From Dokdonella fugitiva (lineage in GTDB: Bacteria; Pseudomonadota; Gammaproteobacteria; Xanthomonadales; Rhodanobacteraceae), in NCBI RefSeq assembly GCF_014138265.1, contig NZ_JACGXL010000009.1, forward strand, positions 1 through 64,000: DNA of 64,000 nucleotides, written 5' to 3'. The notes below the pieces were generated by a model. It was not told the DNA's origin. It saw only the letters and a program-made list of their open reading frames with translations, and searched no databases. Shown piece after piece: positions 24,431-44,421 of this stretch. Position numbers and translations under genes: made by a program. Position 1 is the first letter of the stretch, and every line of letters starts with the position of its first letter.

Positions 24431-24455
24431 CACACGACACGGAGGAGCCAAGCAC

Positions 24456-25088: not shown

Positions 25089-25096
25089 GGTGTCGC

Positions 25097-25423: not shown

Positions 25424-25430
25424 GGGCCGC

Positions 25431-25790
25431 ATGGACATCGACTATCCGTTCCGCTTCGGCAACGACGGTCGCACCGCGAGCACCGGGCTCGACGACCACG
25501 TGCGCGACATGATCGAGCAACTGCTGTTCACGAGCCCGGGCGAACGCGTCAACCGCCCCGAGTTCGGCAGCGGCCTCATGCAGCTCGTGTTCGCGCCGAA
25601 CAGCCCCGAGCTCGCGGCGACGCTCAAGTTCGGCCTGCAGGCCTCGCTGGTGCAATGGCTCGGCGACGTCATCGACATCGTCGCGATCGACGTCGCGGCG
25701 CAGGACGCCGAACTGCGCGTCGAACTCGCCTATCGCGTGCGCGCGAGCGGCGAACTGCGCAACGACAGCTTCGTGCGGAGCGTGCCATGA
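25431..25790 (+). CDS. GPW/gp25 baseplate wedge protein
   Basis: A 119-residue gp25-family protein: MDIDYPFRFGNDGRTASTGL, then DMIEQLLFTSPGERVNRPEF and GSGLMQLVFAPNS. The family is lysozyme-related but non-enzymatic, and in the baseplate it nucleates sheath assembly. Its stop overlaps the ATG of the next gene. Confidence 0.95.
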   Translation: MDIDYPFRFGNDGRTASTGLDDHVRDMIEQLLFTSPGERVNRPEFGSGLMQLVFAPNSPELAATLKFGLQASLVQWLGDVIDIVAIDVAAQDAELRVELAYRVRASGELRNDSFVRSVP

Positions 25791-28519: not shown

Positions 28520-31500
28520 GCTGCTGTGCATCCTGCGGGCAGCACGCCTGCGCCTGCGGCTGCGGCCCGCGTGCGGGCACACCGCTGCCGCTGTACAACC
28601 GGCCCGGCCTCGTTGCGATCGATTACCGCGTCGGCCGCTGGGGCGACTTCCGCGCGACGATGCAGGCACAGCTGAGTTCGGCTGCGCTGCCCGCGCTCGG
28701 CGGCCTGCGCACGCGCGAGGACGACGACGCTTCGATCGCGTTGCTCGACGCGTGGGCGATGACCGTCGACGTGCTGTCGTTCTACCAGGAGCGCATCGCC
28801 AACGAGGGCTACCTGCGCACCGCGACCGAGCGGCTCTCGCTCGCCGAACTCGCGCGCCTCGTCGGCTACGAGCCGCGGCCCGGCGTCGCCGCGAGCGTGC
28901 ACCTCGCCTATACGCTCGACGACAAGGCCGAGCCGGTGCGCATCCTCGCCGGCTCGCGCGCGCAGAGCGTGCCCGGCCCGGGCGAGAAGATGCAGTCGTT
29001 CGAGACGAGCGACGAACTGCTCGCGCGACCGGAATGGAACCGCCTGCAGGTGCGTTCGGGACGGATCGAGCAGATCGCGCCGGCGGACGCGCTGCTGCGC
29101 GGCGGGCTCGTGCTCGCGGGCGCGGCGACGCGGTTAGGCCCGGGCGAACGCGTCCTGTTCGACTACACGCGCAGCGCCGGCCTGCAGATCGTGCGCACGG
29201 TCGCGAGTGCGGAATCCGACTTCGCGCCCACGCACGACCGCCTCAACGTGCGCCTGCAGCCGACCGCGTTCGCGCGCAATGCGGCGATGCGCGCGGTCGC
29301 CGCGCAGCTCGTCGCGACGGGCGCTGCGGCGCACGATGCGCTGAAGGCGCCGGGCGCCCCCGCGACGCCGCCGGCGTGGGTGCGCGAGGTCGTCGTCGCG
29401 CTGCGCAGCGCGCTGCTCGACGCCGACGTCGGCGAACTGTTCGTGCGGCTCGATCGCAACCTCCCCGATGCGCCGCCGGCCGGCGTGTTCCATTCGTTGT
29501 TCGTCGCCGCGGCGAAGCTGCACGACATGATCGCGGATGCGACTGACGCACCCGACGACGCCGATCCGCCACCGCCGACGGCAAGCGCGATCACCGACGT
29601 GATCGGCGTGCTCGACCATCGCGCGGTCGTGCCGCGACTGCCGGCGCTGTCGCCGGTGACCCTGCTCGCGGCGGGCGGCGACGCGGTGCCGCAGCTCATG
29701 AGCCGCTTCGCACCACGCCTGCGCGACGTGCTCTATCCCGCCTGGCGCAACCTGCCGGTCAGCGCGACCGCGGCGACGCTCGACGGCCTGTACGCACTGC
29801 GCATCGCCGCGCCGCTGTTCGCCTACAACGCGCCGCAACCGCCGGCAGGACCGGGCATCGTGGCGCTGGCCGCGACCCAGGGTTCGCCACGCGCGGTGAT
29901 CCATCTCGACAACGTCTATTCGGGCGTGCTCGCCGGCAGCTGGGCGGTCGCGCAGGTCGACACGCGCAGCATTCCGCTGCGCGTCGAGGCGGCGAAGACG
30001 GTCACGTACTCCGAGCGCGGCGTCACCGCCGCGACCACGCAGCTCGCGCTCGTCGCGCCGGACGCGTACTCGGGCGCGCTCGTGCGCACCGCGCAGGCGC
30101 AGCAGTTCGACCGCATGCTCGTGTTCGCGCAGGGCGAACGCCTGCAACTCGCGCGCACGCCGTCGGCGACGCCGCTCGCCGGCGCGTCGATCGAGCTCGA
30201 CGAACTCTACGACGGGCTCAAGCCGGGGCGCTGGATCATCGTCGGCGGCGAGCGCCGCGACGTGCTCGATCTCGACGGCAAGCCGGTGCCCGGCATCCAT
30301 GGCGGCGAACTCGCGCTCGTCGTCGGCGTCGCGCAGGCGCACGATCCGGCCGTTCCCGGCGACTACACGCACACGACGCTGCAGCTCGCGCAGTCGCTGC
30401 GCTATGCCTACGCCTACGACGACGAGCTCGCGGTCTACGGCAACGTCGCCCGCGCGACGCACGGCGAGACGCGCGGCGAAGTGCTCGGCAGCGGCGACGC
30501 ACGCAAGCCGATCCAGCGCTTCGCGCTGAAGCAGGCGCCGCTCACCTACGTCGCCGCGGCGACGCCGCAGGGCGTCGCCACCACGCTCGAAGTGCGCGTC
30601 AACGACGTGCGCTGGCACGAGACCGCGCAGCCTGCGTTCGCCGCGCCCGGCGAGCGCGTCTACAGCGTGCGCCAGGACGACGAAGGCAACAGCACGGTGA
30701 TCTTCGGCAGTCGCGCCGCGCGCGTGCCGAGCGGCAGCGAGAACCTGCGCGCGGCCTACCGCAGCGGCATCGGCCGCGACGGCAACGTGAAGGCGGGCCA
30801 GGTCAGCCTGCTCGCGAGCAAACCGAGCGGCGTGCGCGACGTGGTCAATCCGTTGCGCGCGTCGGGCGGCGCCGACCGCGACGGCATCGAGGCGATCCGG
30901 CGCAACGCGCCGATCGCGGTGATGGCACTGGACCGCCTCGTCTCGCTGCCGGACTACGCCGACTTCGCGCGCGCGTTCGCCGGCATCGGCCAGGCCGCCG
31001 CCGATCGCGTCGGCGACCGCGTGGTCGTGACGATCGCCGGCGGCGACGACGCGCCGATCGACGAGGATTCGGACCTGTACCAGGCGCTCGCGACCGCGCT
31101 GCGCCGCTACGGCGATCCGCAGCTGCGCGTCGAGGTCGTGTCGCGTGAGCTCGTCGCACTCGTCGTCGGCGCGAACATCGCGCTCGATCCCGACTACGAC
31201 TGGAAGGTCGTGCAACCGCAACTGCGTGCGGCGCTGCTGCACCGCTTCGCCTTCGAACGCCGTGCGCTCGGCCGGCGCGCCTACCTCAGCGAGGTGGTGG
31301 CCGAACTGCAGCGCGTGCGCGGCGTCGTCTACGCCGACGTCGACCTTTTCGACGGCATCGACGAGCTCGACCTGCGCGATCCGCAGCGCCTGCAGCAGCG
31401 CCTCGCCGCGCTCGCCGCGGCCGACCAGCCGCACGCGTTCGTCGCCGCGCGCCACGCGCGCGACGAAAGCGCCGCCGACGGCTCGCGCAGCCTGCGCCCG

Positions 31501-31572
31501 GCGCAGCTTGCCTACCTCGTGCCGAGTGTCGCCGAGACGCTCGTGCTGAACCTGCTGCCTTCCGCGAGGTGA
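28516..31572 (+). CDS. Baseplate assembly protein J-like (gp6-type), second copy
   Basis: A 1018-residue protein paralogous in plan to the preceding gene: VLSFYQERIANEGYLRTATE, then LARLVGYEPRPGVAASVHLA, and a C-terminal VIFGSRAARVPSGSENLRAA, LDRLVSLPDYADFARAFAGI and AYLSEVVAELQRVRGVVYAD. The first 20 residues are unusually Cys-rich (MSCCASCGQHACACGCGP), seven Cys in all, and may bind metal. Two tandem J-type proteins are common in eCIS, where they form the two wedge layers (Afp11/12). Confidence 0.85.
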   Translation: MSCCASCGQHACACGCGPRAGTPLPLYNRPGLVAIDYRVGRWGDFRATMQAQLSSAALPALGGLRTREDDDASIALLDAWAMTVDVLSFYQERIANEGYLRTATERLSLAELARLVGYEPRPGVAASVHLAYTLDDKAEPVRILAGSRAQSVPGPGEKMQSFETSDELLARPEWNRLQVRSGRIEQIAPADALLRGGLVLAGAATRLGPGERVLFDYTRSAGLQIVRTVASAESDFAPTHDRLNVRLQPTAFARNAAMRAVAAQLVATGAAAHDALKAPGAPATPPAWVREVVVALRSALLDADVGELFVRLDRNLPDAPPAGVFHSLFVAAAKLHDMIADATDAPDDADPPPPTASAITDVIGVLDHRAVVPRLPALSPVTLLAAGGDAVPQLMSRFAPRLRDVLYPAWRNLPVSATAATLDGLYALRIAAPLFAYNAPQPPAGPGIVALAATQGSPRAVIHLDNVYSGVLAGSWAVAQVDTRSIPLRVEAAKTVTYSERGVTAATTQLALVAPDAYSGALVRTAQAQQFDRMLVFAQGERLQLARTPSATPLAGASIELDELYDGLKPGRWIIVGGERRDVLDLDGKPVPGIHGGELALVVGVAQAHDPAVPGDYTHTTLQLAQSLRYAYAYDDELAVYGNVARATHGETRGEVLGSGDARKPIQRFALKQAPLTYVAAATPQGVATTLEVRVNDVRWHETAQPAFAAPGERVYSVRQDDEGNSTVIFGSRAARVPSGSENLRAAYRSGIGRDGNVKAGQVSLLASKPSGVRDVVNPLRASGGADRDGIEAIRRNAPIAVMALDRLVSLPDYADFARAFAGIGQAAADRVGDRVVVTIAGGDDAPIDEDSDLYQALATALRRYGDPQLRVEVVSRELVALVVGANIALDPDYDWKVVQPQLRAALLHRFAFERRALGRRAYLSEVVAELQRVRGVVYADVDLFDGIDELDLRDPQRLQQRLAALAAADQPHAFVAARHARDESAADGSRSLRPAQLAYLVPSVAETLVLNLLPSAR

Positions 31573-31575
31573 CCC

Positions 31576-33879
31576 TTGGACAACGGTCTCGACACGCTCT
31601 ACCAGCTGCTGCCCGCGTTCCATCGCTCGCGCGATGCCGACGCCGGCCATCCGCTGCGCGACTTCCTGCGCGTGCTCGAAGCGCAGGCGCAGGTGATCGA
31701 CGCGGACATCGCGAGGCTGTACGACAACTGGTTCATCGAAACCTGCGACGACTGGGTGGTGCCGTACATCGGCGACCTGCTCGGCTACACCCTGCTGCCG
31801 GAAGCGGCGACGCTCGGCGACCTCGGCCGGCCGGCGCGCCGCCTCGGTCGCGTGCTCGCGCCGCGCCGCGACGTCGCCAACACGATCGCCGCGCGCCGCC
31901 GCAAGGGCACGCTGTCGCTGCTCGAGGACCTCGCGCGCGACGCCGCCGACTGGCCCGCGCGCGCGGTCGAGTTCTACCGCCTGCTCGGCTGGATGCAGCA
32001 CCTCGACCACGTCCATCCGCAGCGCGGCCGCACCGCCGACCTGCGCCGGCCCGGTCCGTTCGAGCAGCTCGGCGGCGCGTTCGATCCGTTCGCGCGCAGC
32101 GTCGACGTACGCCGGCTCGGCAGCACGCAACGGCGGGGGCGCTACTCGATTCCCGCGGTCGGCCTGTTCGTGTTCCGCCTGCGCAGCTACGGCGTAACGC
32201 GCACGCCCGCCTACTGCCTCGAGGAACGCGGCGCGCATTGCTTCACGTTCAGTGCGCTCGGCAACGACACGGCGCTGTACCAGCGCGTCGTCGCCGAGAC
32301 CGAGCCGACGCACATCGCGCACGAGGAGAACTTGCCCGTGCCGCTGCGCCATCATCGGTTCGCCGTGCGCGGCGACGATGCGCGCTACGGCGAAGCATCG
32401 GCCGCGTGCTACGGCGAAGGTCGCAGCGTGCTCGTGCACGCGCCGGACTGGCCGGCGAAGGGGCAGGGCGTGCCGGTGCCGCGCGAGCGCGTGATCCCGG
32501 CCGATCTCGGCCGCTGGAAGGCGCACGTGCCGCGCGACCACGTCGCGATCGACGTGCAGCGCGGCCGCCTGATGTTCCCGGCGGACCAGCGTCCGCGCCG
32601 CGGCGTCTGGTGCGACTACCGCTACGGTTTCGCCGCCGACCTCGGCGGCGGCGAGTACGCGCGCTGCACGCCGCTGCTCGACGATGCGGTGCGCTACTAC
32701 GTGCACGCCGCACAGCCCGACGACCCGGCGCCATCGAAGCCGCTGTCGCCGCAGCACCACGCGAGCATCGACGATGCGCTGCAGGCGTGGACGCAGGCGA
32801 AGGACGCTGCGGTCGCCGCGGCCGTGCAACGCGCGCTCGACGCCGGCATGTCGCCGGACGATGCGGCGGACGAGGGACGCCGCCAGCGCCCGCGCGCGTT
32901 GATCGTCGAGCTCGTCGCGAGCGGCATCTACGACGGTCGCATCGAGATGCAACTCGAAGCGGGCGAAGCGATCCAGATCCGCGCGGCCGACCGCACGCGA
33001 CCGATCCTGCGGCTGCTCGACTACCGCGCGAGCCAGGCCGACGGCATCACGCTCGCCGGGCGGCGCGGCAGTCGCGTGATCCTCGACGGCCTGCTCGTCG
33101 CCGGGCGCGGCATCGAAGTCGCGCCGCCGACGGGCGACGGCGTGGCCGCGGACGACGACCTGTGCGAGGTCGTGATCCGCCACTGCACGCTCGTGCCCGG
33201 CTGGTCGCTGCATTGCGACTGCGACCCGCGGCGACCGGGCGAACCGAGCATCACGCTCTCCGGCTCGCGCGCGGCGCTGCGCATCGAGCACAGCATCGTC
33301 GGCCCGATCGCGATCGTCGGCGCGCACGGCGAGGCGCCCGTGCTGAACCTCTGCGACAGCATCGTCGATGCGACCGGTCGCGAGCGCGTCGCGATCGGCG
33401 CGCCGGAAGAAGCGGTCGCCCACGTCGAAGCACGCATCGTGCGCTGCACGGTCGTCGGCGAAACCCAAGTCCACGCGATCGCGCTAGCCGAGGACTCGAT
33501 CTTCGACGGACGCGTGCGCACGTTGCGGCGCCAGCGAGGCTGCATGCGCTTCTGCTGGGCGCCGTACGGCTCGCGCACGCCGCGCCGCTTCCATTGCCAG
33601 CCCGACCTCGCGCTCGAAGCCGCCGGCCACGACGCGGCGAAACGCGCCGCCGTGCTGCGCGCGATCGCGCCCGCGTTCATGAGCGAACGCTACGGCACGC
33701 CCGACTACGCGCGCCTCGACGACGCCTGCTGCGACGAGATCGCGAAAGGCGCGTCGGACGAAGGCGCGATGGGCGCGTTCCACGACCTGTACGAACCGCA
33801 GCGCCTCGCCAACCTCGCCGCGCGGCTCGTCGAATACAGTCCGGCCGGCGCGGGCGCCGGCCTCATCCTTGCGAGCTAG
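31576..33879 (+). CDS. Tail-I-like baseplate protein (P2 gpI/Afp13-region type)
   Basis: A 767-residue protein. Residues 1-130 resemble phage tail protein I: LYQLLPAFHRSRDADAGHPL, RDFLRVLEAQAQVIDADIAR, LYDNWFIETCDDWVVPYIGD, LLGY. The C-terminal half is a right-handed beta-helix-like region (DGLLVAGRGIEVAPPTGDG, CEVVIRHCTLVPGWSLHCDC, LRIEHSIVGPIAIVGAHGEA). The start codon is TTG 31576 with GCGAGGTGA upstream. It probably joins wedges to the distal fibre part or itself acts as a surface-exposed adhesin. Confidence 0.75.
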   Translation: MDNGLDTLYQLLPAFHRSRDADAGHPLRDFLRVLEAQAQVIDADIARLYDNWFIETCDDWVVPYIGDLLGYTLLPEAATLGDLGRPARRLGRVLAPRRDVANTIAARRRKGTLSLLEDLARDAADWPARAVEFYRLLGWMQHLDHVHPQRGRTADLRRPGPFEQLGGAFDPFARSVDVRRLGSTQRRGRYSIPAVGLFVFRLRSYGVTRTPAYCLEERGAHCFTFSALGNDTALYQRVVAETEPTHIAHEENLPVPLRHHRFAVRGDDARYGEASAACYGEGRSVLVHAPDWPAKGQGVPVPRERVIPADLGRWKAHVPRDHVAIDVQRGRLMFPADQRPRRGVWCDYRYGFAADLGGGEYARCTPLLDDAVRYYVHAAQPDDPAPSKPLSPQHHASIDDALQAWTQAKDAAVAAAVQRALDAGMSPDDAADEGRRQRPRALIVELVASGIYDGRIEMQLEAGEAIQIRAADRTRPILRLLDYRASQADGITLAGRRGSRVILDGLLVAGRGIEVAPPTGDGVAADDDLCEVVIRHCTLVPGWSLHCDCDPRRPGEPSITLSGSRAALRIEHSIVGPIAIVGAHGEAPVLNLCDSIVDATGRERVAIGAPEEAVAHVEARIVRCTVVGETQVHAIALAEDSIFDGRVRTLRRQRGCMRFCWAPYGSRTPRRFHCQPDLALEAAGHDAAKRAAVLRAIAPAFMSERYGTPDYARLDDACCDEIAKGASDEGAMGAFHDLYEPQRLANLAARLVEYSPAGAGAGLILAS

Positions 33880-33888
33880 GAGCAGATC

Positions 33889-35562
33889 ATGAAAGGCGAT
33901 TTCGCGCGCGTGACATTCGACCGCACCCGGCACTACAGCCAGGTGCTGCAGCAGCAGGGACGCGTGCTGCTCGAGGCGGACTGGAACGAGCAGGGCGCGC
34001 TCATGCTGCATGCGTTGCGCGCCCTCACGGTCGACCTCATGGGCCCGTGCTGGGCCGCCGGCGACGGCTTTCGCATCGACACCAGCGATCCGAAGAATCC
34101 GAACAAGACCGTACCGACACCGGCCTGGCGGCTGTCGCACGGGCGCTTCTACGTCGACGGCATCGCCTGCGAGAACGACCGGCCGTGCGCGCTCGCGGCG
34201 CAACCGTACGCGCCGACGCCCGACCACGATCCAGGCAGCGCGAAGTCCGGCTTCGAGCAACTCGACGCGCCGTACGCGCTCTGGCTCGACGTGTGGGAGC
34301 GTCACCTGAGCGCGGTCGAGGAGCCGGCGCTGCTCGACGGCGCGCTCGGCGGCATCGACACCGCCTCGCGCGCGCAGGTCGTGTGGCAGGTGCGCGCGTG
34401 GACCGAGGAGCGCGCGAAGGCATGGCTGCTCGACCTCGAGGCCGCGATCAAGGCGCGCGCGGACGCGGCCGATCCACAGTCGGCCGAGGCCGCGCAGCTC
34501 GGCAAGGTCGGCGCCGAGATCGACAAGCTCGTCAAGGGCGGGCTGCACGCGGCGTTCGGCAAGCTCGGCGGCAATCCGCCGACCGCATCGGACGACAGTT
34601 GCGCGCGCCTGCGCTGGTGCCTCGACGCGCGCGCGCGTTACGCGTGCCCGCAACTGCGTGCGCAGATCAAGCCGGCCGAGTCCGACGAGGATCCGTGCGT
34701 GATCGCCGCCGACGCGCGCTACCGCGGCTGCGAGAACCAGCTCTATCGCGTCGAGATCCATGCCGGCGGCGCCGCGGGCACGGCGACGTTCAAGTGGTCG
34801 CGCGAGAACGGTTCGGTGCTGTTCCCGATCGTCACGCAAGGCACGCCTGGCGAGGCGGCGGCGGACGGCAGCGCGTCGATGACGATCGAACTCGCGCACC
34901 TCGGTCGCGACGAACGCCTCGGCTTGCGCAACGACGATTGGGTCGAACTCGTCGACGACGACTACACGCTCGGCCAGCGCGCGTGGGCGCTGCTGCAGGT
35001 CACGGCGGTCGACGCGGTGCATCGCGCCGTCACCGTGCGCGTGCCGAAGAACGTGCAGCCCTACCTCGTGTCGGGCAGCCAGCATCCGTTCCTGCGCCGC
35101 TGGGACCAGCGCGAGGACCTCGGCGTGGCCGGCGCCGTCGACGTCGTCGAAGGCAAGGCGATCGACCTCGAGTGCGGCATCCAGGTCGCGTTCGAGACCG
35201 GCGGCTTCTACGCGACCGGTGACTACTGGGTGATTCCCGCGCGCGTTGCCGGCAACGGCTCGATCGACTGGCCGACCGACCCGGCCGCGCCGGACCCGGA
35301 CCTGCCCGGCGTCGCACGTCGCGCGAGTGGCCTGCATCACGTCGCCGTGCTCGGCGGCGCGGATGCGGAAGGCCTGTGGCGCGAATGCTGCTGCCGTCAC
35401 GTGCCGATCTGCCTCGAGCACGCGGTCGCGTTCGATCCCGTCGTCGATGCGGTCGCGTCGCCGGCGAAGCCGCCCACGAAGACCGCACCGGTGAAGAAGG
35501 CGCCGGTGAAGAAGGCGCCCGTGAAGAAGGCGCCGTCGAAGTCCCCGCACGGCCACGGCTAG
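33889..35562 (+). CDS. DUF6519 eCIS protein with Lys-rich C-terminal repeat
   Basis: A 557-residue protein starting MKGDFARVTFDRTRHYSQVL, then QQQGRVLLEADWNEQGALML, the DUF6519 signature. DUF6519 proteins sit at the 3' end of eCIS structural blocks and are likely peripheral (fibre/adhesin-like) parts; this role is not proven. The last 25 residues are basic, with three tandem VKKAP units encoded by exact 15-bp repeats, suggesting an unfolded, charged tail. GGAG lies upstream of ATG 33889. Confidence 0.8.
   Translation: MKGDFARVTFDRTRHYSQVLQQQGRVLLEADWNEQGALMLHALRALTVDLMGPCWAAGDGFRIDTSDPKNPNKTVPTPAWRLSHGRFYVDGIACENDRPCALAAQPYAPTPDHDPGSAKSGFEQLDAPYALWLDVWERHLSAVEEPALLDGALGGIDTASRAQVVWQVRAWTEERAKAWLLDLEAAIKARADAADPQSAEAAQLGKVGAEIDKLVKGGLHAAFGKLGGNPPTASDDSCARLRWCLDARARYACPQLRAQIKPAESDEDPCVIAADARYRGCENQLYRVEIHAGGAAGTATFKWSRENGSVLFPIVTQGTPGEAAADGSASMTIELAHLGRDERLGLRNDDWVELVDDDYTLGQRAWALLQVTAVDAVHRAVTVRVPKNVQPYLVSGSQHPFLRRWDQREDLGVAGAVDVVEGKAIDLECGIQVAFETGGFYATGDYWVIPARVAGNGSIDWPTDPAAPDPDLPGVARRASGLHHVAVLGGADAEGLWRECCCRHVPICLEHAVAFDPVVDAVASPAKPPTKTAPVKKAPVKKAPVKKAPSKSPHGHG
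35491..35535 (+). repeat. Three tandem 15-bp repeats encoding VKKAP
   Basis: GTGAAGAAGGCGCCG, GTGAAGAAGGCGCCC and GTGAAGAAGGCGCCG follow one another at 35491, 35506 and 35521. They are identical except for the last base of the second copy, so the array is recent and could change copy number by slippage. It encodes the basic C-terminal tail of the DUF6519 protein. Confidence 0.9.
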
Positions 35563-35568
35563 CGACGC

Positions 35569-37293
35569 ATGCACGCGCAGCGCACGGCGGCCGGCGAGAC
35601 GAAGCGATCGGTGGATTCATCGCTCGCCTGCGCCGCTCGCGCGCGTGCGGCGTCGCACGCGCACGCGACGATCGCCTCGCCGTCGACGCGTGGATTCGAT
35701 CTCAGCATCGTGCCCGCGTCGGTGTCGGTGCAACGCAAGCCCGCGTTGAGCGAACCCGGCGACGCACTCGAGCGCGAAGCCGACGTCGCCGCCGACCGCG
35801 TGATGCGCATGGCCGACGCGCCGGCGATGACGCCCGCATCCGCGCCGCCGCTGCAGCGCAAGTGCACCGCCTGCCAGGACGACGAGCGCAGGATCCACGC
35901 GCGCCGCGAGTCCGCCGCGCCGGCGTCCGCCGATGCGGACACCGCGACGGCCGCGCGCGTCGCGAGCCGCGGCGGCGCACCCTTGCCGGACGCGTTGCGC
36001 GGCTACTACGAACCGCGCTTCGGCCACGATTTCAGCCACGTGCGCGTGCACACGGACGCGGAAGCCGCGCATGCGGCGCGCGACGTCGGCGCGCAGGCCT
36101 ACACGTTCGGCCATCACATCGTGTTCGGCGGCGGCCGCTACGCGCCTTCGAGCACGGCCGGGCGGCACCTGATCGCGCACGAACTCGCGCACGTCGTGCA
36201 GCAGGGTTCGCGCGGCGCGAGCCTGCAGCGCAAGCTGCTCGTCGACGAGAAGGCGTCGGACGACCCGAAGACCGCGTCGGCGACGATCGACGCGCTGATC
36301 GGCAAGCTCTGTCCCGACTTCGAGGTCGCCAAGGGCGGCCTCGTCACGCCGAAGAAGGGCAGCGATTGCGCGAGCTTCAAGTTCGGCGCGATCGCCAAGG
36401 GCAAGCAGAAGCTCGGCTGCTGCTGCCTGTGCACGCTGACCGCCGCGCCGGATACCTGGCGCGTGGTCGTGTCGATCAACGAAGCGCCGACCACCGATTC
36501 GGCCAAACGCGAAGTGCGCATGACGCCGACGTCGGGCGCGGCCGCGCCGGACCTGCGCTACTGGACCTCGGGACCGACCCAGACCGTGAAGGCGCAAGCG
36601 CCGGAGGAAGCGTTCGGCCACGAGCTGTGCGGACACGCGGCGCTCATGCAGATCAAGGCGCACCCGTCGAGCCTCGCCTCGACGCCCGATCGCGCATTCA
36701 GCGACGTGCACGATCCGACCGTGCGCGTGCAGGATGCGCTCGGCAAGGAAGTGGGTTTCCCCGGCGATCGCGGACTCGCCGGCGGCGGCTCGCATCGCGG
36801 CGAATCACTGCGCGTGTTCTCGATCGGTCCGTTCGGTGCCGACGCCGACGATCCGGCGCCGTTCGCGGCGCAGATCAAGGCCGCGGTGGATTTCATGAAC
36901 GGCAACGCGAACCTGTTCGTCGACGCGGTCGGCTTGCGCGATGCCAAGGACAAGAAGCCGAGCGTGAGCGGATCGCGCGCGAGCAAGGTGCAGGCGGAAC
37001 TCAAGACGGGCGTGAAGGCACTCACGACGAAGGTGAAGACGACGCCGAAGGGGCCGGAGGAAACACTCGACCGCGTGCAACCATCCACCGACGGCGGCAG
37101 CGGTGCGAGCCCGATCGTCGACCTGCGCATGGCGTTCAGGCCGGCCGGCCTGGTCAGTCCGGTCGGCAAGGCGCCGCCAGCGACGCCCGTGCACGTCGAT
37201 CCCGAGTTCCCCGCCGTGGTGAAGGCGCTCAAGGCCGGCGGCAAGGGCACCAACGAATGCCACAAGCTGCTGTCCGACACGGCCTGGCCATGA
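35569..37293 (+). CDS. DUF4157-tagged cargo candidate with HExxxH motif
   Basis: A 574-residue protein. The N-terminal tag has VQRKPALSEPGDALEREADV, a QRKCTACQDD motif and the DUF4157 domain (EPRFGHDFSHVRVHTD; IAHELAHVVQQG, His204). The C-terminal region (about 225-574) has CCCLCTL and AFGHELCGHAALMQIKAHPS, an HExxxH-type metal-binding candidate (His351, Glu352, His356), then GGGSHRGESLRVFSIGPF. A metallohydrolase or structural role is possible; the spacing is not the canonical HExxH. It starts seven bases after the DUF6519 stop. Confidence 0.7.
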   Translation: MHAQRTAAGETKRSVDSSLACAARARAASHAHATIASPSTRGFDLSIVPASVSVQRKPALSEPGDALEREADVAADRVMRMADAPAMTPASAPPLQRKCTACQDDERRIHARRESAAPASADADTATAARVASRGGAPLPDALRGYYEPRFGHDFSHVRVHTDAEAAHAARDVGAQAYTFGHHIVFGGGRYAPSSTAGRHLIAHELAHVVQQGSRGASLQRKLLVDEKASDDPKTASATIDALIGKLCPDFEVAKGGLVTPKKGSDCASFKFGAIAKGKQKLGCCCLCTLTAAPDTWRVVVSINEAPTTDSAKREVRMTPTSGAAAPDLRYWTSGPTQTVKAQAPEEAFGHELCGHAALMQIKAHPSSLASTPDRAFSDVHDPTVRVQDALGKEVGFPGDRGLAGGGSHRGESLRVFSIGPFGADADDPAPFAAQIKAAVDFMNGNANLFVDAVGLRDAKDKKPSVSGSRASKVQAELKTGVKALTTKVKTTPKGPEETLDRVQPSTDGGSGASPIVDLRMAFRPAGLVSPVGKAPPATPVHVDPEFPAVVKALKAGGKGTNECHKLLSDTAWP

Positions 37294-38816
37294 CGATGCA
37301 CGCGCATGCGCACAAGCCGAACGCGCCGGTCGCATCCGCGTGCGTGCCGCCGCCGATCCAGCGCAAGCCGTCGATCAGCACGCCCGGCGACGCCTTCGAG
37401 CGCGAAGCCGATGCGGTCGCCGATCGCGTGCTGCGCATGGCCGATGCGCCCGTGTCAGGCGCGACGTCACCAACCGTGCAACGCACGTGCGCCGCCTGCG
37501 AGGACGACGCGCGCAAGCGCATGCAGCGTCGCGCGGCGGGCGGCGATGCCGCGCTCGACACGACGGCCGCCGCGCACGCCGCAGCGCACGGCGGCGAACC
37601 GCTCGCATCGGAGGTGCGTGCGTACTTCGAGCCGCGCTTCGGCCGCGACTTCAGCCGCGTGCGCGTGCACACCGACGACAGCGCGACGCGCGCGGTGCAG
37701 GCACGCGCGTACACCTACGGCAGCGACATCGTGTTCGGTCGCGGCGAGTACGCGCCGTCGACGCACGCGGGCCGGCACCTGCTCGCGCACGAGTTGACCC
37801 ACGTCGTGCAGCAGGGTGCTGCGAGCTTGCACCCGCACGCACGTGCGGCACCGTCGATCGCGCGCGCGCCATCGGCCGTGCAGCGCCAGGCGGCGCAGGA
37901 GCCGCCGCTCGAGTCGGACGATGCGCTGCTCGCCTGCCTCGCGCTCGCGCCGTGGCCGTTGAAGGGCATGTGCTTCGACCTGGCGTCGAAGCCTCGTGCG
38001 AAGCCGAAGACGTTCGACGATCCGCGTTGTCGCGATCCGAAACCTCCCGCGCCGACGCCGGCGCCCGCACCGGGCGTGTCGCCGCCGCAGGGACTTCCGC
38101 CGCTGCCGTTCTTCCACGGTACCACCTGGGCGATCGCGCAGACGATTCCCGGCAACGTCAAGCCGCTCGGCGGCGGCGACTTCGGCCAGGGCTTCTACAC
38201 CCATCACGACGCGGACATGGGCAAGGCGTCCGAACGCGCGCGCTGGGAAGGTTGCCGCCTGTGCCAGAAGCTGACGCCGAAGGTGCGCTATGCGGGCGTG
38301 ATCCGCTTCGACGTCGAGGCCGATGCGTACAAGAAGCTGTTCAGCAGTCGCAAGACGTTCGGCCTCACCTCGACCAAGCAGGCCGACTACGCCGCGCGGC
38401 AGAAGGATTGGCTCGACTTCGTCAGCGGCACCGGGCGCGGGCGCGAGGCGAAGCCGGGCTACGACACCGCGCATATGGCGTGGCGCCACCCGCGCGTCGA
38501 TCCGCCGCCGGACCAGGGCTTCGACCTCATCGAAGGGCCGATGTACAAGGGCGTCGAAGGCCTGCCGGGTTCGAGCGTGCCGGCGCGCTCCGCCTTCGAT
38601 CCGTACGCCGAAGGCACGGCGTTGCCGCAGCAGGTCGTGTGGAACCACGATCGCGCGCTCGGCGTGCTCAACGCGGCGAAGACCACGCTCAAGCAGTACG
38701 ACGCGCAGGACCACTGCAAGGAAGTCGATCCGCCGGTCGCGGTGAAGGCCGCGGCATCCGCCACCGAAGATCCGAAGGCGCGCGAGGAAGCGCGCATCGG
38801 CATGACCGGACACTGA
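37290..38816 (+). CDS. DUF4157-tagged ADP-ribosyltransferase-like (DUF3990) cargo candidate
   Basis: A 508-residue protein. It carries the shared tag IQRKPSISTPGDAFEREADA, QRTCAACEDD, and the DUF4157 domain (LLAHELTHVVQQG). After a Pro-rich linker (about 250-270), the C-terminal domain resembles DUF3990: PFFHGTTWAIAQTI (His276), GGGDFGQGFYTH (Tyr303) and LPQQVVWNHDRALGVL (Gln447/448), the H-Y-Q order of PARP-like ADP-ribosyltransferase folds. Two Cys (GCRLCQK) follow the second motif. ATG overlaps the preceding stop (ATGA). It is a probable toxin payload, but activity is not shown. Confidence 0.75.
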   Translation: MTMHAHAHKPNAPVASACVPPPIQRKPSISTPGDAFEREADAVADRVLRMADAPVSGATSPTVQRTCAACEDDARKRMQRRAAGGDAALDTTAAAHAAAHGGEPLASEVRAYFEPRFGRDFSRVRVHTDDSATRAVQARAYTYGSDIVFGRGEYAPSTHAGRHLLAHELTHVVQQGAASLHPHARAAPSIARAPSAVQRQAAQEPPLESDDALLACLALAPWPLKGMCFDLASKPRAKPKTFDDPRCRDPKPPAPTPAPAPGVSPPQGLPPLPFFHGTTWAIAQTIPGNVKPLGGGDFGQGFYTHHDADMGKASERARWEGCRLCQKLTPKVRYAGVIRFDVEADAYKKLFSSRKTFGLTSTKQADYAARQKDWLDFVSGTGRGREAKPGYDTAHMAWRHPRVDPPPDQGFDLIEGPMYKGVEGLPGSSVPARSAFDPYAEGTALPQQVVWNHDRALGVLNAAKTTLKQYDAQDHCKEVDPPVAVKAAASATEDPKAREEARIGMTGH

Positions 38817-38817
38817 C

Positions 38818-39150
38818 ATGCGCCTCGACGAGCTGACCCGGCGCCTCGACGCGATCGCCTGGCACGAGCAGGTCGAACACACGCTGGCCGAGCGCACCGC
38901 GCCGGCGGCCGTACCCGACCACGCGATGGTCGAGCGCGAGCTCGGCACGCTCGCCGGGGAGGTCGATCGCGCATTGCTCGACGCGCTCGAGGCCGAAGAC
39001 GGCTACCTCATCTGGGCCCTGCGTCTCGCTGCGCACATCGATCCGGCGGCAGCGCGCGAACGAGCACGAGCCTATTGCGACAGCAGCAATGCGCGTGTGC
39101 GCTACTGGGCCCGTCGCATCGCGCGTGCGAACGAAGCGCTGGAGCCGTGA
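38818..39150 (+). CDS. Small helical protein between two cargo genes
   Basis: A 110-residue, acidic, all-helical protein (MRLDELTRRLDAIAWHEQVE, REGTLAGE-like helices, YLIWALRLAAHIDPAAARE, VRYWARRIARANEAL), with HEAT-repeat-like spacing. It is not recognised as a known family. It lies one base after the ART-like gene's stop and three before the next cargo gene. It could be an immunity protein or a chaperone/adaptor for loading; both are inference. Confidence 0.6.
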   Translation: MRLDELTRRLDAIAWHEQVEHTLAERTAPAAVPDHAMVERELGTLAGEVDRALLDALEAEDGYLIWALRLAAHIDPAAARERARAYCDSSNARVRYWARRIARANEALEP

Positions 39151-39152
39151 GC

Positions 39153-41342
39153 ATGCACGCGAGCGCACGATCGAGCAGCGCCACAGCGGCCGCGGCGGAA
39201 CCGGCCGCGCGCGATGCGGCGACGCGACCGCGCCTGCCCGGCGCGCCGACGACGGCGACCGCGCACGGGTTCGATCTTGCGCGCGTGCCCGCGCGCGCCG
39301 CGCCGATGCAGCGCAAGCCCGCGATCAGCACGCCCGGCGACGCCTTCGAGCGCGAAGCCGACGCGGTCGCCGACCGCGTGCTGCGCATGGCCGATCCGCA
39401 GGCGATCGGCGTGACGCCGCCGGCGGTGCAGCGGAAGTGCGCTGCCTGCGAGGACGACGAGAAGAAGAAGCTGCACGCCAAGCACGATGCGCCGACGGCC
39501 AACGATGCGACGCTCGATACCGATGTCGCCGCGCATGCGGCGCGGCACGGCGGTCGACCGCTGTCGCACGACCTGCGCGCGTACTTCGAACCGCGATTCG
39601 GCCATGACTTCAGCCAGGTGCGCGTGCACACCGACGGCGACGCGGCGCAGGCCGCGCGCGGCGTGCAGGCGCGCGCCTACACGCTCGGCCGCGACATCGT
39701 GTTCGGCGCGGGCCAGTACGCGCCGGCGACGAGTTCGGGCCGCCACCTGCTCGCGCACGAACTCACCCACGTCGTGCAGCAGGGCGGCACGCGCCGCGCG
39801 ACCACGACTACCGCGGCCGGTACCGTGCAGCGCGCGCCGCCCGCGCCGAGTACCGCGGCCGGCAGCGACTTCGACATCGTCGGCAAGCCCGGCAGCGCGG
39901 CCGGGCACACGACGCGCATCCACTTCGACAAGAACAGCGACACGATCGACAGCGACGAGGACAAGAAGCTCGCGCCGTTCAAGAGCGACGAGGTCACGCT
40001 CAACGCGCACCAGAGCGAGGAGGAGGCGGCGGGCACCGCGGGCAAGCGCGCGACTGCGGCGAAGGCTGCGCTCGTCGCGCTCGGCCATCCGGCGGCGACC
40101 ATCCACGTCACCGTGGTCGGCGTGACCGCGCAGCTCGACTACGCCAACGCGCGCATCGTCGAGATCGTGCCGAAAGGCAAGAAGGCGACGAAGAGCAAGT
40201 GCCCGGTGTCGCCGAAGCTGGCGGACATGGCGGTGTCGTGCAAGGGCGTCAAGCGCAGCGCGCCGTTCCGCGCCGCGGTGAAGGCCGCGCGCGACGCGAT
40301 CGCCAAGTCGCGCGACAAGCTCAAGAAGGACGTCGCCAAGGGCACGCCGGACGCGGCCACGCTCGCCGTCGTCAAGACGCATTTCGCGAAGCCGTCCAAC
40401 GCGGACAAGGTGCGCACCAAGCTCGGCGAGATCGACGCGTTCCTCAAGAACCTGCCCGCGATCACCGAATGCCACAACGAGTGCGACCCCGATTGCGCCA
40501 ACCCCGCCTACTGGGACCCGAACCGCACGAAGATCGTGTTGTGCGCAGGCTTCGACGGTCGCGACCCGCAGGCGCAGGCCGGCCTCGTCATGCACGAGGC
40601 GACGCACGGCGTGCCGACGATCCAGAGCCAAGACCTCGGCTACGCGAGCGATCGCATCATCAACTTCCTCGACGAGACGCACGCGTTCAAGAACACCGAC
40701 AGCTACACCACGCTCGTGCGCGACCTCACCTCGATCGGCAAGTTCGCCGACGACGTGCCCAAGGACACATTCAGCGGACTCGGCAAGCACAAGATCGGCG
40801 GCGTCGACGTCGACGACAAGGACACGATCGGCGAAGCCGCCGCACTCGCGGAGAAGTGGTGCATCTGGGCCTACCAGGACCTGCAGTTCCTCTACGGCGG
40901 CATCCAGGACGCGATCGCCGGTTCGAAGACGCTCAACGGGCCGAACCTCAAGGAAGTGCAGGGCTCGCTGCACACGCATTTCGGCCTCACCGACGCCGCG
41001 CTCAAGCCGACCTTCGCCGACCAGACCAAGGTCGCCGCGCTCGAGGATCACTTCGAGCGCTTCGGTATCAACACCTTCAACCAGCCGGTCGCGTTCGCCA
41101 AGGCGGCGCCGGCGAAGGACACGGCTTGGGGCACGTCGAAACCGGACGTGCCCGGCGGCAAGGCCGTCGTGCAGCCGAACGTCGACGTCGGCGACGACTT
41201 CTGGGCGAAGTCGTCGCCGCAGGCGCGCGCGCGCCTGCTCATCGAGGCGATGGTGCGCGCGAGCAAGGATGCGAGCGCGGCGAAGGCGAACGCGTACGCG
41301 CTGTTCGCGTTCGATCGCAGCAAGACGCCGGAGCGCCTCTGA
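39153..41342 (+). CDS. DUF4157-tagged aspzincin-like (M35) metallopeptidase cargo candidate
   Basis: A 729-residue protein. It has the shared tag (MQRKPAISTPGDAFEREADA; QRKCAACEDDEKKK) and DUF4157 (LLAHELTHVVQQG, near residue 202). An OmpA-like segment at about 250-330 follows (IHFDKNSDTIDSDEDKKL, VTLNAHQSEEE). A Lys-rich region leads to a peptidase motif: GLVMHEATHGV (HExxH, His481/Glu482/His485), then QDLGYAS (GTxDxxY-like) and FKNTDSYTTL, which fit the aspzincin/lysine-specific M35 pattern. It may be a peptidase payload. ATG 39153, with GGAG upstream, is chosen. Confidence 0.75.
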   Translation: MHASARSSSATAAAAEPAARDAATRPRLPGAPTTATAHGFDLARVPARAAPMQRKPAISTPGDAFEREADAVADRVLRMADPQAIGVTPPAVQRKCAACEDDEKKKLHAKHDAPTANDATLDTDVAAHAARHGGRPLSHDLRAYFEPRFGHDFSQVRVHTDGDAAQAARGVQARAYTLGRDIVFGAGQYAPATSSGRHLLAHELTHVVQQGGTRRATTTTAAGTVQRAPPAPSTAAGSDFDIVGKPGSAAGHTTRIHFDKNSDTIDSDEDKKLAPFKSDEVTLNAHQSEEEAAGTAGKRATAAKAALVALGHPAATIHVTVVGVTAQLDYANARIVEIVPKGKKATKSKCPVSPKLADMAVSCKGVKRSAPFRAAVKAARDAIAKSRDKLKKDVAKGTPDAATLAVVKTHFAKPSNADKVRTKLGEIDAFLKNLPAITECHNECDPDCANPAYWDPNRTKIVLCAGFDGRDPQAQAGLVMHEATHGVPTIQSQDLGYASDRIINFLDETHAFKNTDSYTTLVRDLTSIGKFADDVPKDTFSGLGKHKIGGVDVDDKDTIGEAAALAEKWCIWAYQDLQFLYGGIQDAIAGSKTLNGPNLKEVQGSLHTHFGLTDAALKPTFADQTKVAALEDHFERFGINTFNQPVAFAKAAPAKDTAWGTSKPDVPGGKAVVQPNVDVGDDFWAKSSPQARARLLIEAMVRASKDASAAKANAYALFAFDRSKTPERL

Positions 41343-41379
41343 CCATGGGCACGCATCGCACGCCGACAGGAGACGCAGG

Positions 41380-42351
41380 ATGAGCAGCGAAGCGCTGCTC
41401 GCGACGGTCGAGCTGCCGTTCGGTGGCGGCGACGGCACCTGCGCGGCGGCGTTCGACGGCCGGCTGCACTTGTTCGTCGTCGACGGCGCGCGCAGCACGC
41501 ATGCGTCGATCGACGCTTCGGGTCGCGCGAGCGCGTACTCGCACGATGTCGCGTTCGCGGTCGTCGATGCCGCCGCGACCGGCGACGGTCTCGTGCTCGT
41601 CGGCGACGTCGACGACGGCCGCCTCGTCGTCGCCGCGCTCGATGCGGACGGCCGCGAGCGCTGGCGCCACGCGCTCGACGCCGCGTCGCCACTGCTGCAC
41701 GCGCCGATCGTGCGCGCGTACGGCGATCGCGCAACGGTCGCGTGGGAGGAGGAGCGCGGTGACGCCAGCGTGCTCGCGTGGTGCGACGTCGACGCGGACG
41801 GTGCGACGCCGGTGCAGCGCATGCCGCTCGCCGATACGACGCTGCGGCTCGCCGCGACGGCGATCGACGACGGGCTCGTCGTCGCGCGCCTCGCCGGCAT
41901 GCCGCCGCGCGCGACGCTCCTGCGCATCGTCGGCGGCGCGGTCGTCGCGCAGCGCGAGGTCAGCGACGCTTGCAACGGGCCGATCGCCTTGGCGCGCGAC
42001 GGCGATGGCATCGCGCTCGCCGGATGCGATGACGCGCACCTCGTCGTCTCGCGCTTCGATGCGAAGCTCACGCCGCTCGGACCCGCGCGGACCGTGGCCG
42101 CAACGAAGATCGATCGCCTGGGCGCGTTCGACGGCGGCCACGCCGTGTTCGTCGGCACGCGCTGGCCCGCGAAGCCCGCCGTGCACGGCATCGTTCCCGC
42201 GGACGGGGCATCCGCGCGCGTCTTCATCGCGCAGCGCGCGTTCGAGTTGCCGCAACCCGTCGGCCGCGTCGAGGCCGGCGGATGGATCGGCGATCGCTTC
42301 GTGCTCGTGCACGGCGACGACATCCTCGCGGCCAGCGTCTTCGCGGGCTGA
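41380..42351 (+). CDS. Propeller-like repeat protein inside the cargo array
   Basis: A 323-residue protein of repeated beta strands (LLATVELPFGGGDGTCAAAF, FDGRLHLFVVDG, GLVLVGDVDDGRLVVAALDA, ATVAWEEERGDASVLAWCD, VVARLAGMPPRATLLRIVGG), a pattern of a WD/beta-propeller with degenerate repeats. It has no signal peptide. It lies between the peptidase and nuclease cargo genes. It might be a receptor-binding part, a cargo protein without leader, or an immunity protein; the sequence does not decide. AGGAGA precedes ATG 41380. Confidence 0.6.
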   Translation: MSSEALLATVELPFGGGDGTCAAAFDGRLHLFVVDGARSTHASIDASGRASAYSHDVAFAVVDAAATGDGLVLVGDVDDGRLVVAALDADGRERWRHALDAASPLLHAPIVRAYGDRATVAWEEERGDASVLAWCDVDADGATPVQRMPLADTTLRLAATAIDDGLVVARLAGMPPRATLLRIVGGAVVAQREVSDACNGPIALARDGDGIALAGCDDAHLVVSRFDAKLTPLGPARTVAATKIDRLGAFDGGHAVFVGTRWPAKPAVHGIVPADGASARVFIAQRAFELPQPVGRVEAGGWIGDRFVLVHGDDILAASVFAG

Positions 42352-42456
42352 GGCCGCGCGCTCGTCCTGATTGCACTCCCGATGGCGTTCTCCGTAGCGT
42401 CGCACCCGCCTTCGCGCCGACGCGATGCGGTGCAGACCCAGCCATGGAGGTGCCTC

Positions 42457-44421
42457 GTGTTCACAGCCGTCGACAAGGCCCGTTCCCCGACGCCCGGCAC
42501 GTCGTCGCCGGCGCGCGCGCACGACAGGCCCCCCGCTGCGGCTTCGGCATCCACCGCGCCCGGCTTCGACCTTGCGGCGGTCCCCGCACGCGCGCAACGC
42601 AAGCCCGCGGTCAGCCATCCCGCCGACGCAGCCGAGCGCGAAGCCGATGCGGTAGCCGATCGCATCATGCGCGACGCCGCACCCGAGCCGATCGCGCGCG
42701 CGGGCACCGGCGTGCAGCGCAAGTGCGCCGCGTGCGAAGACGAAGGCAAGCCCGCGATCCAGCGCAAGCCCGCGGCACACGCGCCCGCGGCTGCGCTCGA
42801 TACGCCCGCGGCCGCTCGCACCGCGAGCAGCGGCGGCTCGCCGCTGTCGCCCGCCCTGCGCGCGTTCTACGAACCGCGCCTCGGCCACGATTTCAGCGAC
42901 GTGCGCGTGCATGCCGACGGCGAAGCCGCGCTCGCGGCGCGCGGCGTCAACGCGCGCGCGTATACGTTCGGCAGCCACATCGTGTTCGGCGCGGGCCAGT
43001 TCGCGCCGGCGACCCCAGGCGGGCGGCGCCTGCTCGCGCACGAACTCACCCACGTCGTGCAGCAGGGCGGCGCGGCCGCCGCCGACGGCGTCATCGCGCG
43101 CGACGCCGAGGAAGCCGAACCGATGATCGAACTCGAGATCGACTCGTTGCCGCAGATGCCGAGTGCGGCCGAGCAGGAAGCGTTCAACCGCGAACGCGAA
43201 GCCGGCGTGATGCCGAACGCGCCGCCGGTCGCGTTCCACGACCGCGGCGCGCACACCAACTGGGCGGCCGCGTTCGACTACCGCGACAAGCAGATGCAGG
43301 CCTGGAGCCGCCTCGCCCGGCTCGAAGCCGACGTCATCGTCGTGCTCGAGTCCGGCGGCGATCCACCGGGCTTCATCACGACCGGGCCGACGCAACGCTC
43401 CGCGGATGCGGACTACAACGTGGTCGAGTACCGGCCACGCATCTTCCACGTGCTCGATGCGATCGAGTGGACGGTCGAGCACATCGACCGCGACGACGCC
43501 GCGAGCGCCTACCTGAAATTCGTGTTCGGCGATCTCGGGCGCAAGCCGAACCAGGGCACGCCGGTATCGTTCATCGGCTCCAATCCCGGCTACCTCGACA
43601 TGCAAGGCCTCGACCCGGACGGCAGCAAGCGCATCGAAGCATTCAAGCGCGGCATCGAGAAACGCAACCGTCGCCTCGGCCGCAAGCCGAAGACCGCCGC
43701 CGATCCGAAGCCCCAGCCGAAGATCGCCGTCGACGCCGATTTCCAGGTCGACACCGACCAGCGCCGCAAGGGTCGCAACCCGTGCGAACCGCACCTCACG
43801 CTGCCGGAAGCCAAGCGACCGCACTACGGTCGTTACCGGTCCGACGTGCTCGGCTCGCGCCTCGCCGCGTACCCCACGGAGATCATCAACCGCCTGCGCA
43901 CCACCGCCTACGAACGCGAGTCCGACCAGGTCAACAAATGGCTGAAGGCGATGGACCCCGACACCGGGCTCATGACGAAGAGCGTGTTCCAGCGCGGCAT
44001 GGACATGCTCACGAAGGACGCGAAATGCGGCAAGGACAAGGACTGCATCGCCAGGCAGCGCAAGCGCGTGCTGAAGCCCGATTGGGCACCCGACGGTTCG
44101 AAGAAGCAGATGGACGTCGACCACATCATCGAGCTGCAACTCGGCGGCCTGCTCGGCAACGAGGCGCTCGACCAGTTCGACAACTACGAACTGCTCGACT
44201 CCAGCACCAACTCGTCGGTCGGCTCCACGCTCGACAAGGACCTGCAGAAGGAACGCGCGCGCCTCAAGAAGGAATGCCCCAAGTACGTCCCCAACTGGGA
44301 CCACGTGATGATGGTGTTCTCCCTGCCGATCTTCGCGGGCGGCGGCAAGGCGCCCGGGCAGCGCTGGTCGCGCCAGCAGATCGCGGGGGGCGAGCATCTG
44401 GATGCCTACAGGAGACGGTGA
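42457..44421 (+). CDS. DUF4157-tagged HNH-type nuclease cargo candidate
   Basis: A 654-residue protein. The shared tag (AQRKPAVSHPADAAEREADA; QRKCAACEDEG) and DUF4157 domain (LLAHELTHVVQQG, near residue 195) form the N-terminal third. The C-terminus carries a beta-beta-alpha-metal nuclease pattern: KKQMDVDHIIELQLGG (Asp555, His556), then DNYELLDSSTNSSVGSTLDK, matching DHxxEL...N...N toxins. A long middle region is of unknown fold. GTG 42457 is favoured by GGAGG six bases upstream; ATG 42382 is an alternative. A 105-base gap before it may hold a separate promoter. Confidence 0.75.
   Translation: MFTAVDKARSPTPGTSSPARAHDRPPAAASASTAPGFDLAAVPARAQRKPAVSHPADAAEREADAVADRIMRDAAPEPIARAGTGVQRKCAACEDEGKPAIQRKPAAHAPAAALDTPAAARTASSGGSPLSPALRAFYEPRLGHDFSDVRVHADGEAALAARGVNARAYTFGSHIVFGAGQFAPATPGGRRLLAHELTHVVQQGGAAAADGVIARDAEEAEPMIELEIDSLPQMPSAAEQEAFNREREAGVMPNAPPVAFHDRGAHTNWAAAFDYRDKQMQAWSRLARLEADVIVVLESGGDPPGFITTGPTQRSADADYNVVEYRPRIFHVLDAIEWTVEHIDRDDAASAYLKFVFGDLGRKPNQGTPVSFIGSNPGYLDMQGLDPDGSKRIEAFKRGIEKRNRRLGRKPKTAADPKPQPKIAVDADFQVDTDQRRKGRNPCEPHLTLPEAKRPHYGRYRSDVLGSRLAAYPTEIINRLRTTAYERESDQVNKWLKAMDPDTGLMTKSVFQRGMDMLTKDAKCGKDKDCIARQRKRVLKPDWAPDGSKKQMDVDHIIELQLGGLLGNEALDQFDNYELLDSSTNSSVGSTLDKDLQKERARLKKECPKYVPNWDHVMMVFSLPIFAGGGKAPGQRWSRQQIAGGEHLDAYRRR

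What the first reader, a model, noticed from the sequence alone, without database searches (positions are those of the whole stretch)
35569..44421. Array of DUF4157-tagged proteins with different C-terminal payload-like domains
Four consecutive large genes share one N-terminal module (QRKP...PGDAFEREADAVADR...QRKCAACEDD and DUF4157) but have unrelated C-termini: an HExxxH protein, a DUF3990 ADP-ribosyltransferase-like domain, an aspzincin-like HEATH/DLGY/NTDSY peptidase behind an OmpA-like segment, and an HNH-type nuclease. The pattern looks like a common loading tag with exchangeable cargo.
Basis: partly seen in the sequence, partly recalled or inferred. Interest (0 to 1): 0.8.

Follow-up and report, generated by a model that had tools for sequence, protein, structure and literature searches.

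The report
Injection cargo with rearranged protease tag
A bacterial phage-tail-like injection machine has a row of cargo-like proteins that share a front part and differ at the back, a known arrangement, but the shared front part looks like a small zinc-protease-type domain with one key helix moved to the other end of the chain.

Summary
The array is real. Four DUF4157 proteins (A-D) at 35569-44421 share an N-terminal module (58-69% identical) and have unrelated C-termini. They follow an eCIS locus with sheath, tube, baseplate and AAA ATPase genes. Two corrections: two ORFs interrupt the row, and a fifth DUF4157 protein (E, 19594-22248) lies among the structural genes. 'Tag plus exchangeable cargo' is published (Geller 2021, AlgoCIS Cgo1/2, Danov 2024, archaeal CIS), so that part is a new member of a known kind. 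Exchange is supported here: payload A is 57% identical to one in a Pyrinomonadaceae MAG, while A's tag is closest to its neighbours' tags.

Not found in print: the shared 'PGDxxEREADxxADRV' stretch matches the third-zinc-ligand helix of M48 peptidases (BepA). In A-D it lies 130-136 residues before HExxH; in E it lies 29 after, the usual order. In 228 non-redundant DUF4157 proteins it is before (131), after (51), both (9) or undetected (37), and the two places largely exclude each other. So the tag is probably a complete, circularly permuted mini-gluzincin. A hydrophobic-QR motif is concentrated in the linkers around it. Zinc binding, catalysis and loading are untested.

The parts
35569..37293 (+). 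Gene A: DUF4157 module plus payload with HELCGH (HExxxH); 574 aa
37290..38816 (+). Gene B: DUF4157 module plus DUF3990/ART-like payload (below cut-off); 508 aa
38818..39150 (+). 110-aa ORF between B and C, candidate immunity partner (inference from position)
39153..41342 (+). Gene C: DUF4157 module, OmpA-like segment (below cut-off), aspzincin M35 payload; 729 aa
41380..42351 (+). ORF between C and D, weak PQQ_2 propeller match (16.6 bits, cut-off 27.6); ORF opens at 41269, start at 41380 is my choice; candidate immunity partner (inference)
42382..44421 (+). Gene D: DUF4157 module plus HNH-like payload (no Pfam support in D); 679 aa
35761..35814 (+). A: relocated third-ligand-type helix (ExEADxxA), 136 residues before HExxH (HExxH at 36178-36192)
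37389..37442 (+). B: same helix, 130 residues before HExxH (37788-37802)
39339..39392 (+). C: same helix, 136 residues before HExxH (39756-39770)
42625..42678 (+). D: same helix, 135 residues before HExxH (43039-43053)
19594..22248 (+). Gene E: fifth DUF4157 protein, 884 aa, among structural genes
20089..20142 (+). E: helix in ordinary order, 29 residues after HExxH (20011-20025)
11535..15015 (+). Sheath (11535-13715), gp19-type tube (13726-14259), T4-type baseplate protein (14269-15015)
15769..17100 (+). Pvc16 N-terminal domain protein
17091..19181 (+). AAA ATPase with winged-helix domain (loading-ATPase candidate); start not determined
22265..25790 (+). CIS tube protein, weak VgrG-related hub (below cut-off), base_V spike protein, gp25
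25655..35562 (+). Baseplate region: gp6-like (below cut-off), baseplate J, an unassigned ORF (31576-33879), DUF6519

Best explanation
A-D, and probably E, are cargo of the eCIS encoded just upstream. Each has three parts: disordered leader and linkers with a repeated hydrophobic-QR(K) motif and a CxxC pair; a small M48-like gluzincin domain; and an exchangeable C-terminal payload. In A-D the third-ligand helix (ExEADxxA) lies in front of the HExxH core and docks back across a disordered linker; in E it follows the core as in ordinary gluzincins. Supported by computation: module sharing, unrelated payloads, the same helix in two chain positions, HExxH conservation, confinement of the QR motif to the flanks. 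Inferred: zinc binding, loading into the tube with help of the AAA ATPase, and that the domain takes part in docking, processing or release of the payload.
For: Module and payloads. Locus. Helix before 131, after 51, both 9, neither 37 of 228; regex exclusivity 22 of 51 against 7 of 128, p 7e-9, control window 1 of 51 against 0 of 128. 32 of 33 strongly scored downstream copies start 24-33 residues after HExxH. The A-D-type N-terminal block matches the E-type post-core block (hhalign 99.0%) and the post-core part of 63 proteins chosen only for lacking the upstream motif (97.2%; three controls 0.2-1.4%). BepA (M48) is the first PDB hit of both profiles (E 0.014-0.022), with the helix aligned in exchanged order for the A-D type. 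In BepA a glutamate on the next helix, E201, binds zinc (passages). AF2: relocated helix pLDDT about 92 between linkers of 48-59; E-type domain mean pLDDT 93. HExxH in 98 of 98. L140 carries nearly the same helix before and after the core. Cargo role: passages.
Against: 37 of 228 have no detectable helix although HExxH is kept. The helix part of the BepA match is weak by itself (3.9 and 1.0 bits), and the hhalign of the E-type profile with M48 stops before the helix. Foldseek finds no significant structure for either model. The helix-bearing alignments were chosen with a motif profile, so the invariance of its Glu is partly built in. At 55% clustering (25 proteins) exclusivity is p 0.021-0.11. 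Toxicity of AlgoCIS Cgo1 does not need its metalloprotease motifs (passage). No metal-site geometry was measured; loading not tested.
Confidence: 0.7

Rival explanations
1. Plain loading tag: the module only docks cargo to hub or tube; the zinc site is a structural relic and the helix relocation a harmless rearrangement.
For: DUF4157 proteins co-purify with spike and tube-initiator proteins in Streptomyces (passages) and fill the AlgoCIS tube; Cgo1 toxicity is independent of the metalloprotease motifs.
Against: The catalytic Glu of HExxH, not needed for mere docking, is kept in 98 of 98; one and only one helix copy is the rule in either position.
Confidence: 0.4
2. Self-processing protease: the domain cuts its own flanks, perhaps at the hydrophobic-QR sites, to free the payload or the leader.
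For: VQR, IQR, LQR and QRK are among the six most enriched flank tripeptides; the motif is near zero inside the core and near expectation in payloads; HExxH conserved.
Against: No cleavage data; a repeated motif may as well be a binding site; QR-x is not a specificity I know for M48 peptidases (recalled).
Confidence: 0.22
3. The EREAD stretch is an independent recognition motif for the loading machinery that merely resembles the M48 helix.
For: It lies in the N-terminal part where eCIS loading signals lie (passages).
Against: The same stretch follows the core in 51 of 228 and then is absent upstream; match to post-core blocks; confident helix between disordered linkers.
Confidence: 0.15
4. The C-termini are coat, fibre or baseplate parts rather than payloads.
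For: A-D lie next to structural genes.
Against: C has an aspzincin peptidase above cut-off; none of A-D has a Pfam match to a structural family.
Confidence: 0.04

Closest known systems
AlgoCIS cargo Cgo1/Cgo2 (PMC8894135, passages)
   Same: Two cargo proteins with a similar disordered N-terminus and DUF4157 and different C-termini, located in the tube
   Different: Four plus one here; helix position not described in the passages read
eCIS-associated toxins with DUF4157 (PMC8213781, PMC11297309, passages)
   Same: N-terminal DUF4157, variable C-terminal toxins, 3' end of the operon, loading hypothesis
   Different: Domain treated as the HExxH core; no mobile third-ligand helix or QR motif in the passages read
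Haloarchaeal CIS DUF4157 toxins with immunity genes (PMC11566945, passages)
   Same: Several DUF4157 proteins secreted sheath-dependently; downstream partner genes protect
   Different: Different host and payloads; partner ORFs here only inferred from position
M48 peptidases / BepA (PMC7950410, passages)
   Same: HExxH plus a later ExEAD helix whose Glu binds zinc
   Different: In A-D the helix precedes HExxH; in E-type proteins the spacing is 24-33, against 56-78 in 17 pattern-selected M48 proteins
VgrG2b C-terminal gluzincin (PMC6899460, passages)
   Same: Orthologues annotated DUF4157; solved zinc gluzincin delivered by a contractile system
   Different: Third ligand after HExxH; it is the toxin itself, not a carrier of another payload
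Mini-zincins DUF6647 and Tox-MPTase5 (PMC11467057, passages)
   Same: DUF4157 is already in Pfam peptidase clan MA; an upstream third ligand was suggested for these two other families
   Different: Not suggested for DUF4157 in the passages read; no comparison of two orders in one family

Membership tests
eCIS_core / DUF4157 (PF13699) | Profile match above cut-off | tested here: met
   A-D 105.8-113.2 bits, E 97.1 bits, cut-off 22
eCIS cargo (EAT) | Encoded next to an eCIS locus with structural genes and AAA ATPase | tested here: met
eCIS cargo (EAT) | Present in the particle and released on contraction | not testable with these tools
   Needs purified particles
eCIS cargo (EAT) | Toxic or enzymatic C-terminal domain | tested here: inconclusive
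   Aspzincin in C above cut-off; B below cut-off; D no family match in D itself (for a relative); A none
Gluzincin, clan MA(E) | HExxH | tested here: met
   A-E; 98 of 98 covered of 100 matches
Gluzincin, clan MA(E) | Third zinc ligand Glu on a further helix | tested here: inconclusive
   Matching helix found by profile; geometry not measured
Peptidase M48 | Third-ligand helix after HExxH in the chain | tested here: not met
   Not met in A-D (130-136 before); met in E (29 after). A-D are therefore called M48-like, not M48
Peptidase M48 | HPx4R active-site plug | not tested
   No search for it was made
Aspzincin M35 (gene C payload) | PF14521 above cut-off | tested here: met
   39.5 bits, cut-off 30
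DUF3990 (gene B payload) | PF13151 above cut-off | tested here: not met
   14.9 bits, cut-off 32.2
HNH nuclease (gene D payload) | HNH profile above cut-off | tested here: not met
   No HNH family in D; HNH_4 at E 0.12 in relative L087

The most novel reading that the evidence does not exclude
The common eCIS cargo domain is an active peptidase with a swapped helix. With the third-ligand helix placed in front of the core across a disordered, QR-studded linker, the zinc site can come apart and reassemble when the cargo threads through the tube, so the cargo cuts itself at flanking QR sites and frees the payload in the target.
Probability: 0.2. Interest if true: 0.88.

Novelty: new variant of a known kind. 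Interest (0 to 1): 0.6.

Why it matters
DUF4157 is the marker domain of eCIS cargo, and its role is called unknown in the papers read in passages. If its HExxH core pairs with one mobile third-ligand helix, the domain has a precise, testable active site, and its borders must be redrawn: the 79-position Pfam model leaves the helix out. Point changes could then separate docking from catalysis. The QR motif gives a second simple target for loading or processing tests.

Tried and rejected
Topology and place in the operon: no link. Next to an AAA or CIS-tube gene lie 37 of 95 helix-before and 13 of 31 helix-after proteins (loci under 7 kb and the window left out). Number and direction of helix moves: 22 changes on a core tree of 161 rows, but only 1 independent pair on supported branches, so not countable. 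Leader comparison: L155's module leader is 42-45% identical to its own neighbours' and 38-43% to window A-D's, which does not discriminate. Tag tree: A with L155 as one clade p-AU 0.055, not formally rejected; A-D as one clade is not in the best tree and not rejected (p 0.21). Payload B: no relative in 368 other genomes of the class sample. First genome-contig scan with gene A: 68 pattern matches, no relative. PDB hits other than BepA (E 0.19 and above) and RohQ for payload D (E 0.16) taken as chance. Viral structure library: no match for the A-D-type model. Strict-motif classing (U 125, D 23, UD 3, ID 1, none 104 of 256) was replaced by a motif profile and re-tested with plain regexes.

Rows dropped before counts: of 260 DUF4157 ORFs 4 had no HExxH in the match; 242 of the other 256 had a core score of at least 50, of which 228 remained at 85% identity; one search used the 179 with enough flank. 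Of the 9 'both' cases 5 have one weak member (score 3.8-6.9, threshold 3.4). Sampling bias: genome contigs gave the best 80 of 569 by similarity to a helix-before sequence, so the proportions are not population frequencies. The listing was cut; its totals were seen.

Novelty searches. Of every paper cited I saw passages found by terms, not whole texts; bioRxiv-only work is not in the library.
Full report
What is there. The window lies in a 4.77-Mb genome in 13 contigs. A relative in the same family group, G054, has a contig of 257,616 bases, the length of a Dyella subtropica contig found by name; from that I infer the family Rhodanobacteraceae. From about 11.5 to 35.6 kb the + strand encodes an eCIS: sheath, gp19-type tube, T4-type baseplate protein, Pvc16, AAA ATPase with a winged-helix domain, a DUF4157 protein (E), CIS tube, a hub (weak match), spike, gp25, gp6-like (weak match), baseplate J and DUF6519. 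Four further DUF4157 genes, A-D, follow at 35569-44421, with a 110-aa ORF between B and C and an ORF with a sub-threshold propeller match between C and D. The PF13699 search of the genome gives these five places. In the relatives search 22 of 119 genomes have a match; of 15 other same-genus genomes listed only G001 has one, below the cut-off. In the class sample it is 35 of 369.

Tag and payload. A-D share a module of about 160-170 residues at 58-69% identity; the C-terminal parts are unrelated. Payload A has a 56.5% identical relative over 359 columns in a Pyrinomonadaceae MAG (L155), also behind a DUF4157 module. That module is 46.7% identical to A's and stands 33rd in A's hit list, whereas A's best matches other than itself are the modules of C and B (59.5% and 59.7%). 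In a tree of 56 modules A, B and C lie in a 3-row set with support 99/92, and a 7-row set holding A-D has 100/98; holding A with L155 costs 30 log units, p-AU 0.055; holding A-D together costs 12, p 0.21. So the payload seems to have moved while the tag is local, but the formal test is borderline. Relatives of payload D sit behind modules of either order: L075 and L087 helix-before, L187 helix-after with a marginal score of 3.5.

The shared module is more than the Pfam core. I collected 260 DUF4157 ORFs from 162 sources, the window and 161 loci. In 228 non-redundant ones a motif profile puts the helix before in 131, after in 51, both in 9 and nowhere in 37. Of 33 strongly scored downstream copies 32 start 24-33 residues after the first His, one at 43. 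In four loci it sits 73-77 residues before HExxH, inside the core region (L044, L117, L040, L059). With plain regexes, in 179 proteins with enough flank, the downstream motif occurs in 22 of 51 without an upstream motif and in 7 of 128 with one (p 7e-9); 60-76 residues downstream the same count is 1 of 51 and 0 of 128. The strict and the context regex give p 0.0012 and 3e-8. After clustering at 65% (97 proteins) p is 0.039, 0.018 and 0.0003 for strict, relaxed and context regex; at 55% (25 proteins) 0.11, 0.021 and 0.026. Of the 9 'both' cases four score strongly twice; in L140 the two copies are nearly identical, as a duplication intermediate would be.

What the helix is. Profiles of both classes find BepA, an M48 peptidase, first in the PDB (E 0.014-0.022). 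With the A-D-type profile the core aligns to BepA 59-103 and the N-terminal helix to 156-172, so the order is exchanged; the helix pieces are weak by themselves (3.9 bits, and 1.0 bit for the E-type profile). In BepA the zinc is held by H136, H140, E201 on helix H5 and H246 (PMC7950410, passages); that the aligned NEQEADRIG stretch holds E201 is my inference from chain numbering. In 17 M48 proteins of related genomes, picked with a pattern, a similar stretch lies 56-78 residues after HExxH. By hhalign the A-D-type N-terminal block matches the E-type post-core block at 99.0% and the M48 set exactly at its helix, though with only 22.8% probability; the core alone matches M48 at 80.3%; the whole E-type profile matches M48 at 72.0% but the alignment ends before the helix. 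The post-core part of 63 proteins chosen only for lacking an upstream motif matches the A-D-type N-terminal block at 97.2%, against 0.2-1.4% for three control samples of helix-before proteins. AlphaFold2 gives the relocated helix pLDDT about 92 between linkers of about 48-59, and a compact E-type domain, mean pLDDT 93, with the helix at 92-98. Foldseek gives nothing significant; the best PDB hit of the E-type model is the small gluzincin abylysin, 104 columns against its 105 residues, E 1.5. I had no coordinates, so the metal site is unmeasured. HExxH is intact in 98 of 98 sequences covering it (100 matches; window, loci L034-L101 and L180-L194, the last found partly through an LLAHEL pattern).

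Linker motif. A tripeptide count over 228 proteins against shuffles ranks VQR, CAC, IQR, QRK, LQR and RKC highest in the flanks; QR occurs in 205 of 228 against 116 in shuffles. The hydrophobic-QR rate reaches 12 times expectation upstream and 7 times just after HExxH, is near zero inside the core, and is 0.6-2.9 times expectation beyond +160. Upstream, a four-Cys pattern occurs in 72 and a CxxC alone in 48 of 228.

Known and new. N-terminal DUF4157 with variable C-terminal toxins, the loading hypothesis, location in the tube, co-purification with spike proteins, sheath-dependent secretion and protective partner genes are in print (passages). DUF4157 is already in Pfam peptidase clan MA, and upstream third ligands were suggested for two other families (passages). 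VgrG2b's C-terminal domain, with orthologues annotated DUF4157, is a solved gluzincin in ordinary order (passages). Against a catalytic role stands that Cgo1 toxicity does not need its metalloprotease motifs (passage). In the searches I did not find the relocated helix, the two orders in one locus, or the QR motif.

Judgement. The array is a new member of a known kind; the rearranged zincin makes it a new variant. My odds: cargo about 0.85, complete permuted zinc site about 0.72, catalysis about 0.4, self-processing about 0.22.

Noticed in passing
10045-11097: A sigma-54-type activator (Sigma54_activat, Fis HTH) just upstream of the sheath gene; possible regulator of the eCIS (neighbours; match).
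   Followed up: no
19594-22248: E has a long C-terminal part with DCGVYA and a later EHFMLV stretch that looks like a Cys-His enzyme to me (recalled resemblance); no Pfam match, one relative L083.
   Followed up: partly
L044, L117, L040, L059: A third position of the helix, inside the core region, 73-77 residues before HExxH.
   Followed up: partly
L140 ORF at 491: Nearly identical helix segments before and after the core, like a duplication intermediate of the permutation.
   Followed up: partly
flanks of DUF4157 in 228 proteins: Cys patterns: four-Cys type in 72, single CxxC in 48, other Cys in 51, none in 57; a zinc knuckle or cysteine switch is possible.
   Followed up: no
L083, L088, L089 and others: 37 of 228 DUF4157 proteins keep HExxH but show no helix in either place; their third ligand, if any, is unknown.
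   Followed up: no
44877-46497: An alpha/beta hydrolase gene (+) and a TetR regulator gene (-) follow the array.
   Followed up: no
50001-52000: GC drops to 0.61 against about 0.70 around it.
   Followed up: no
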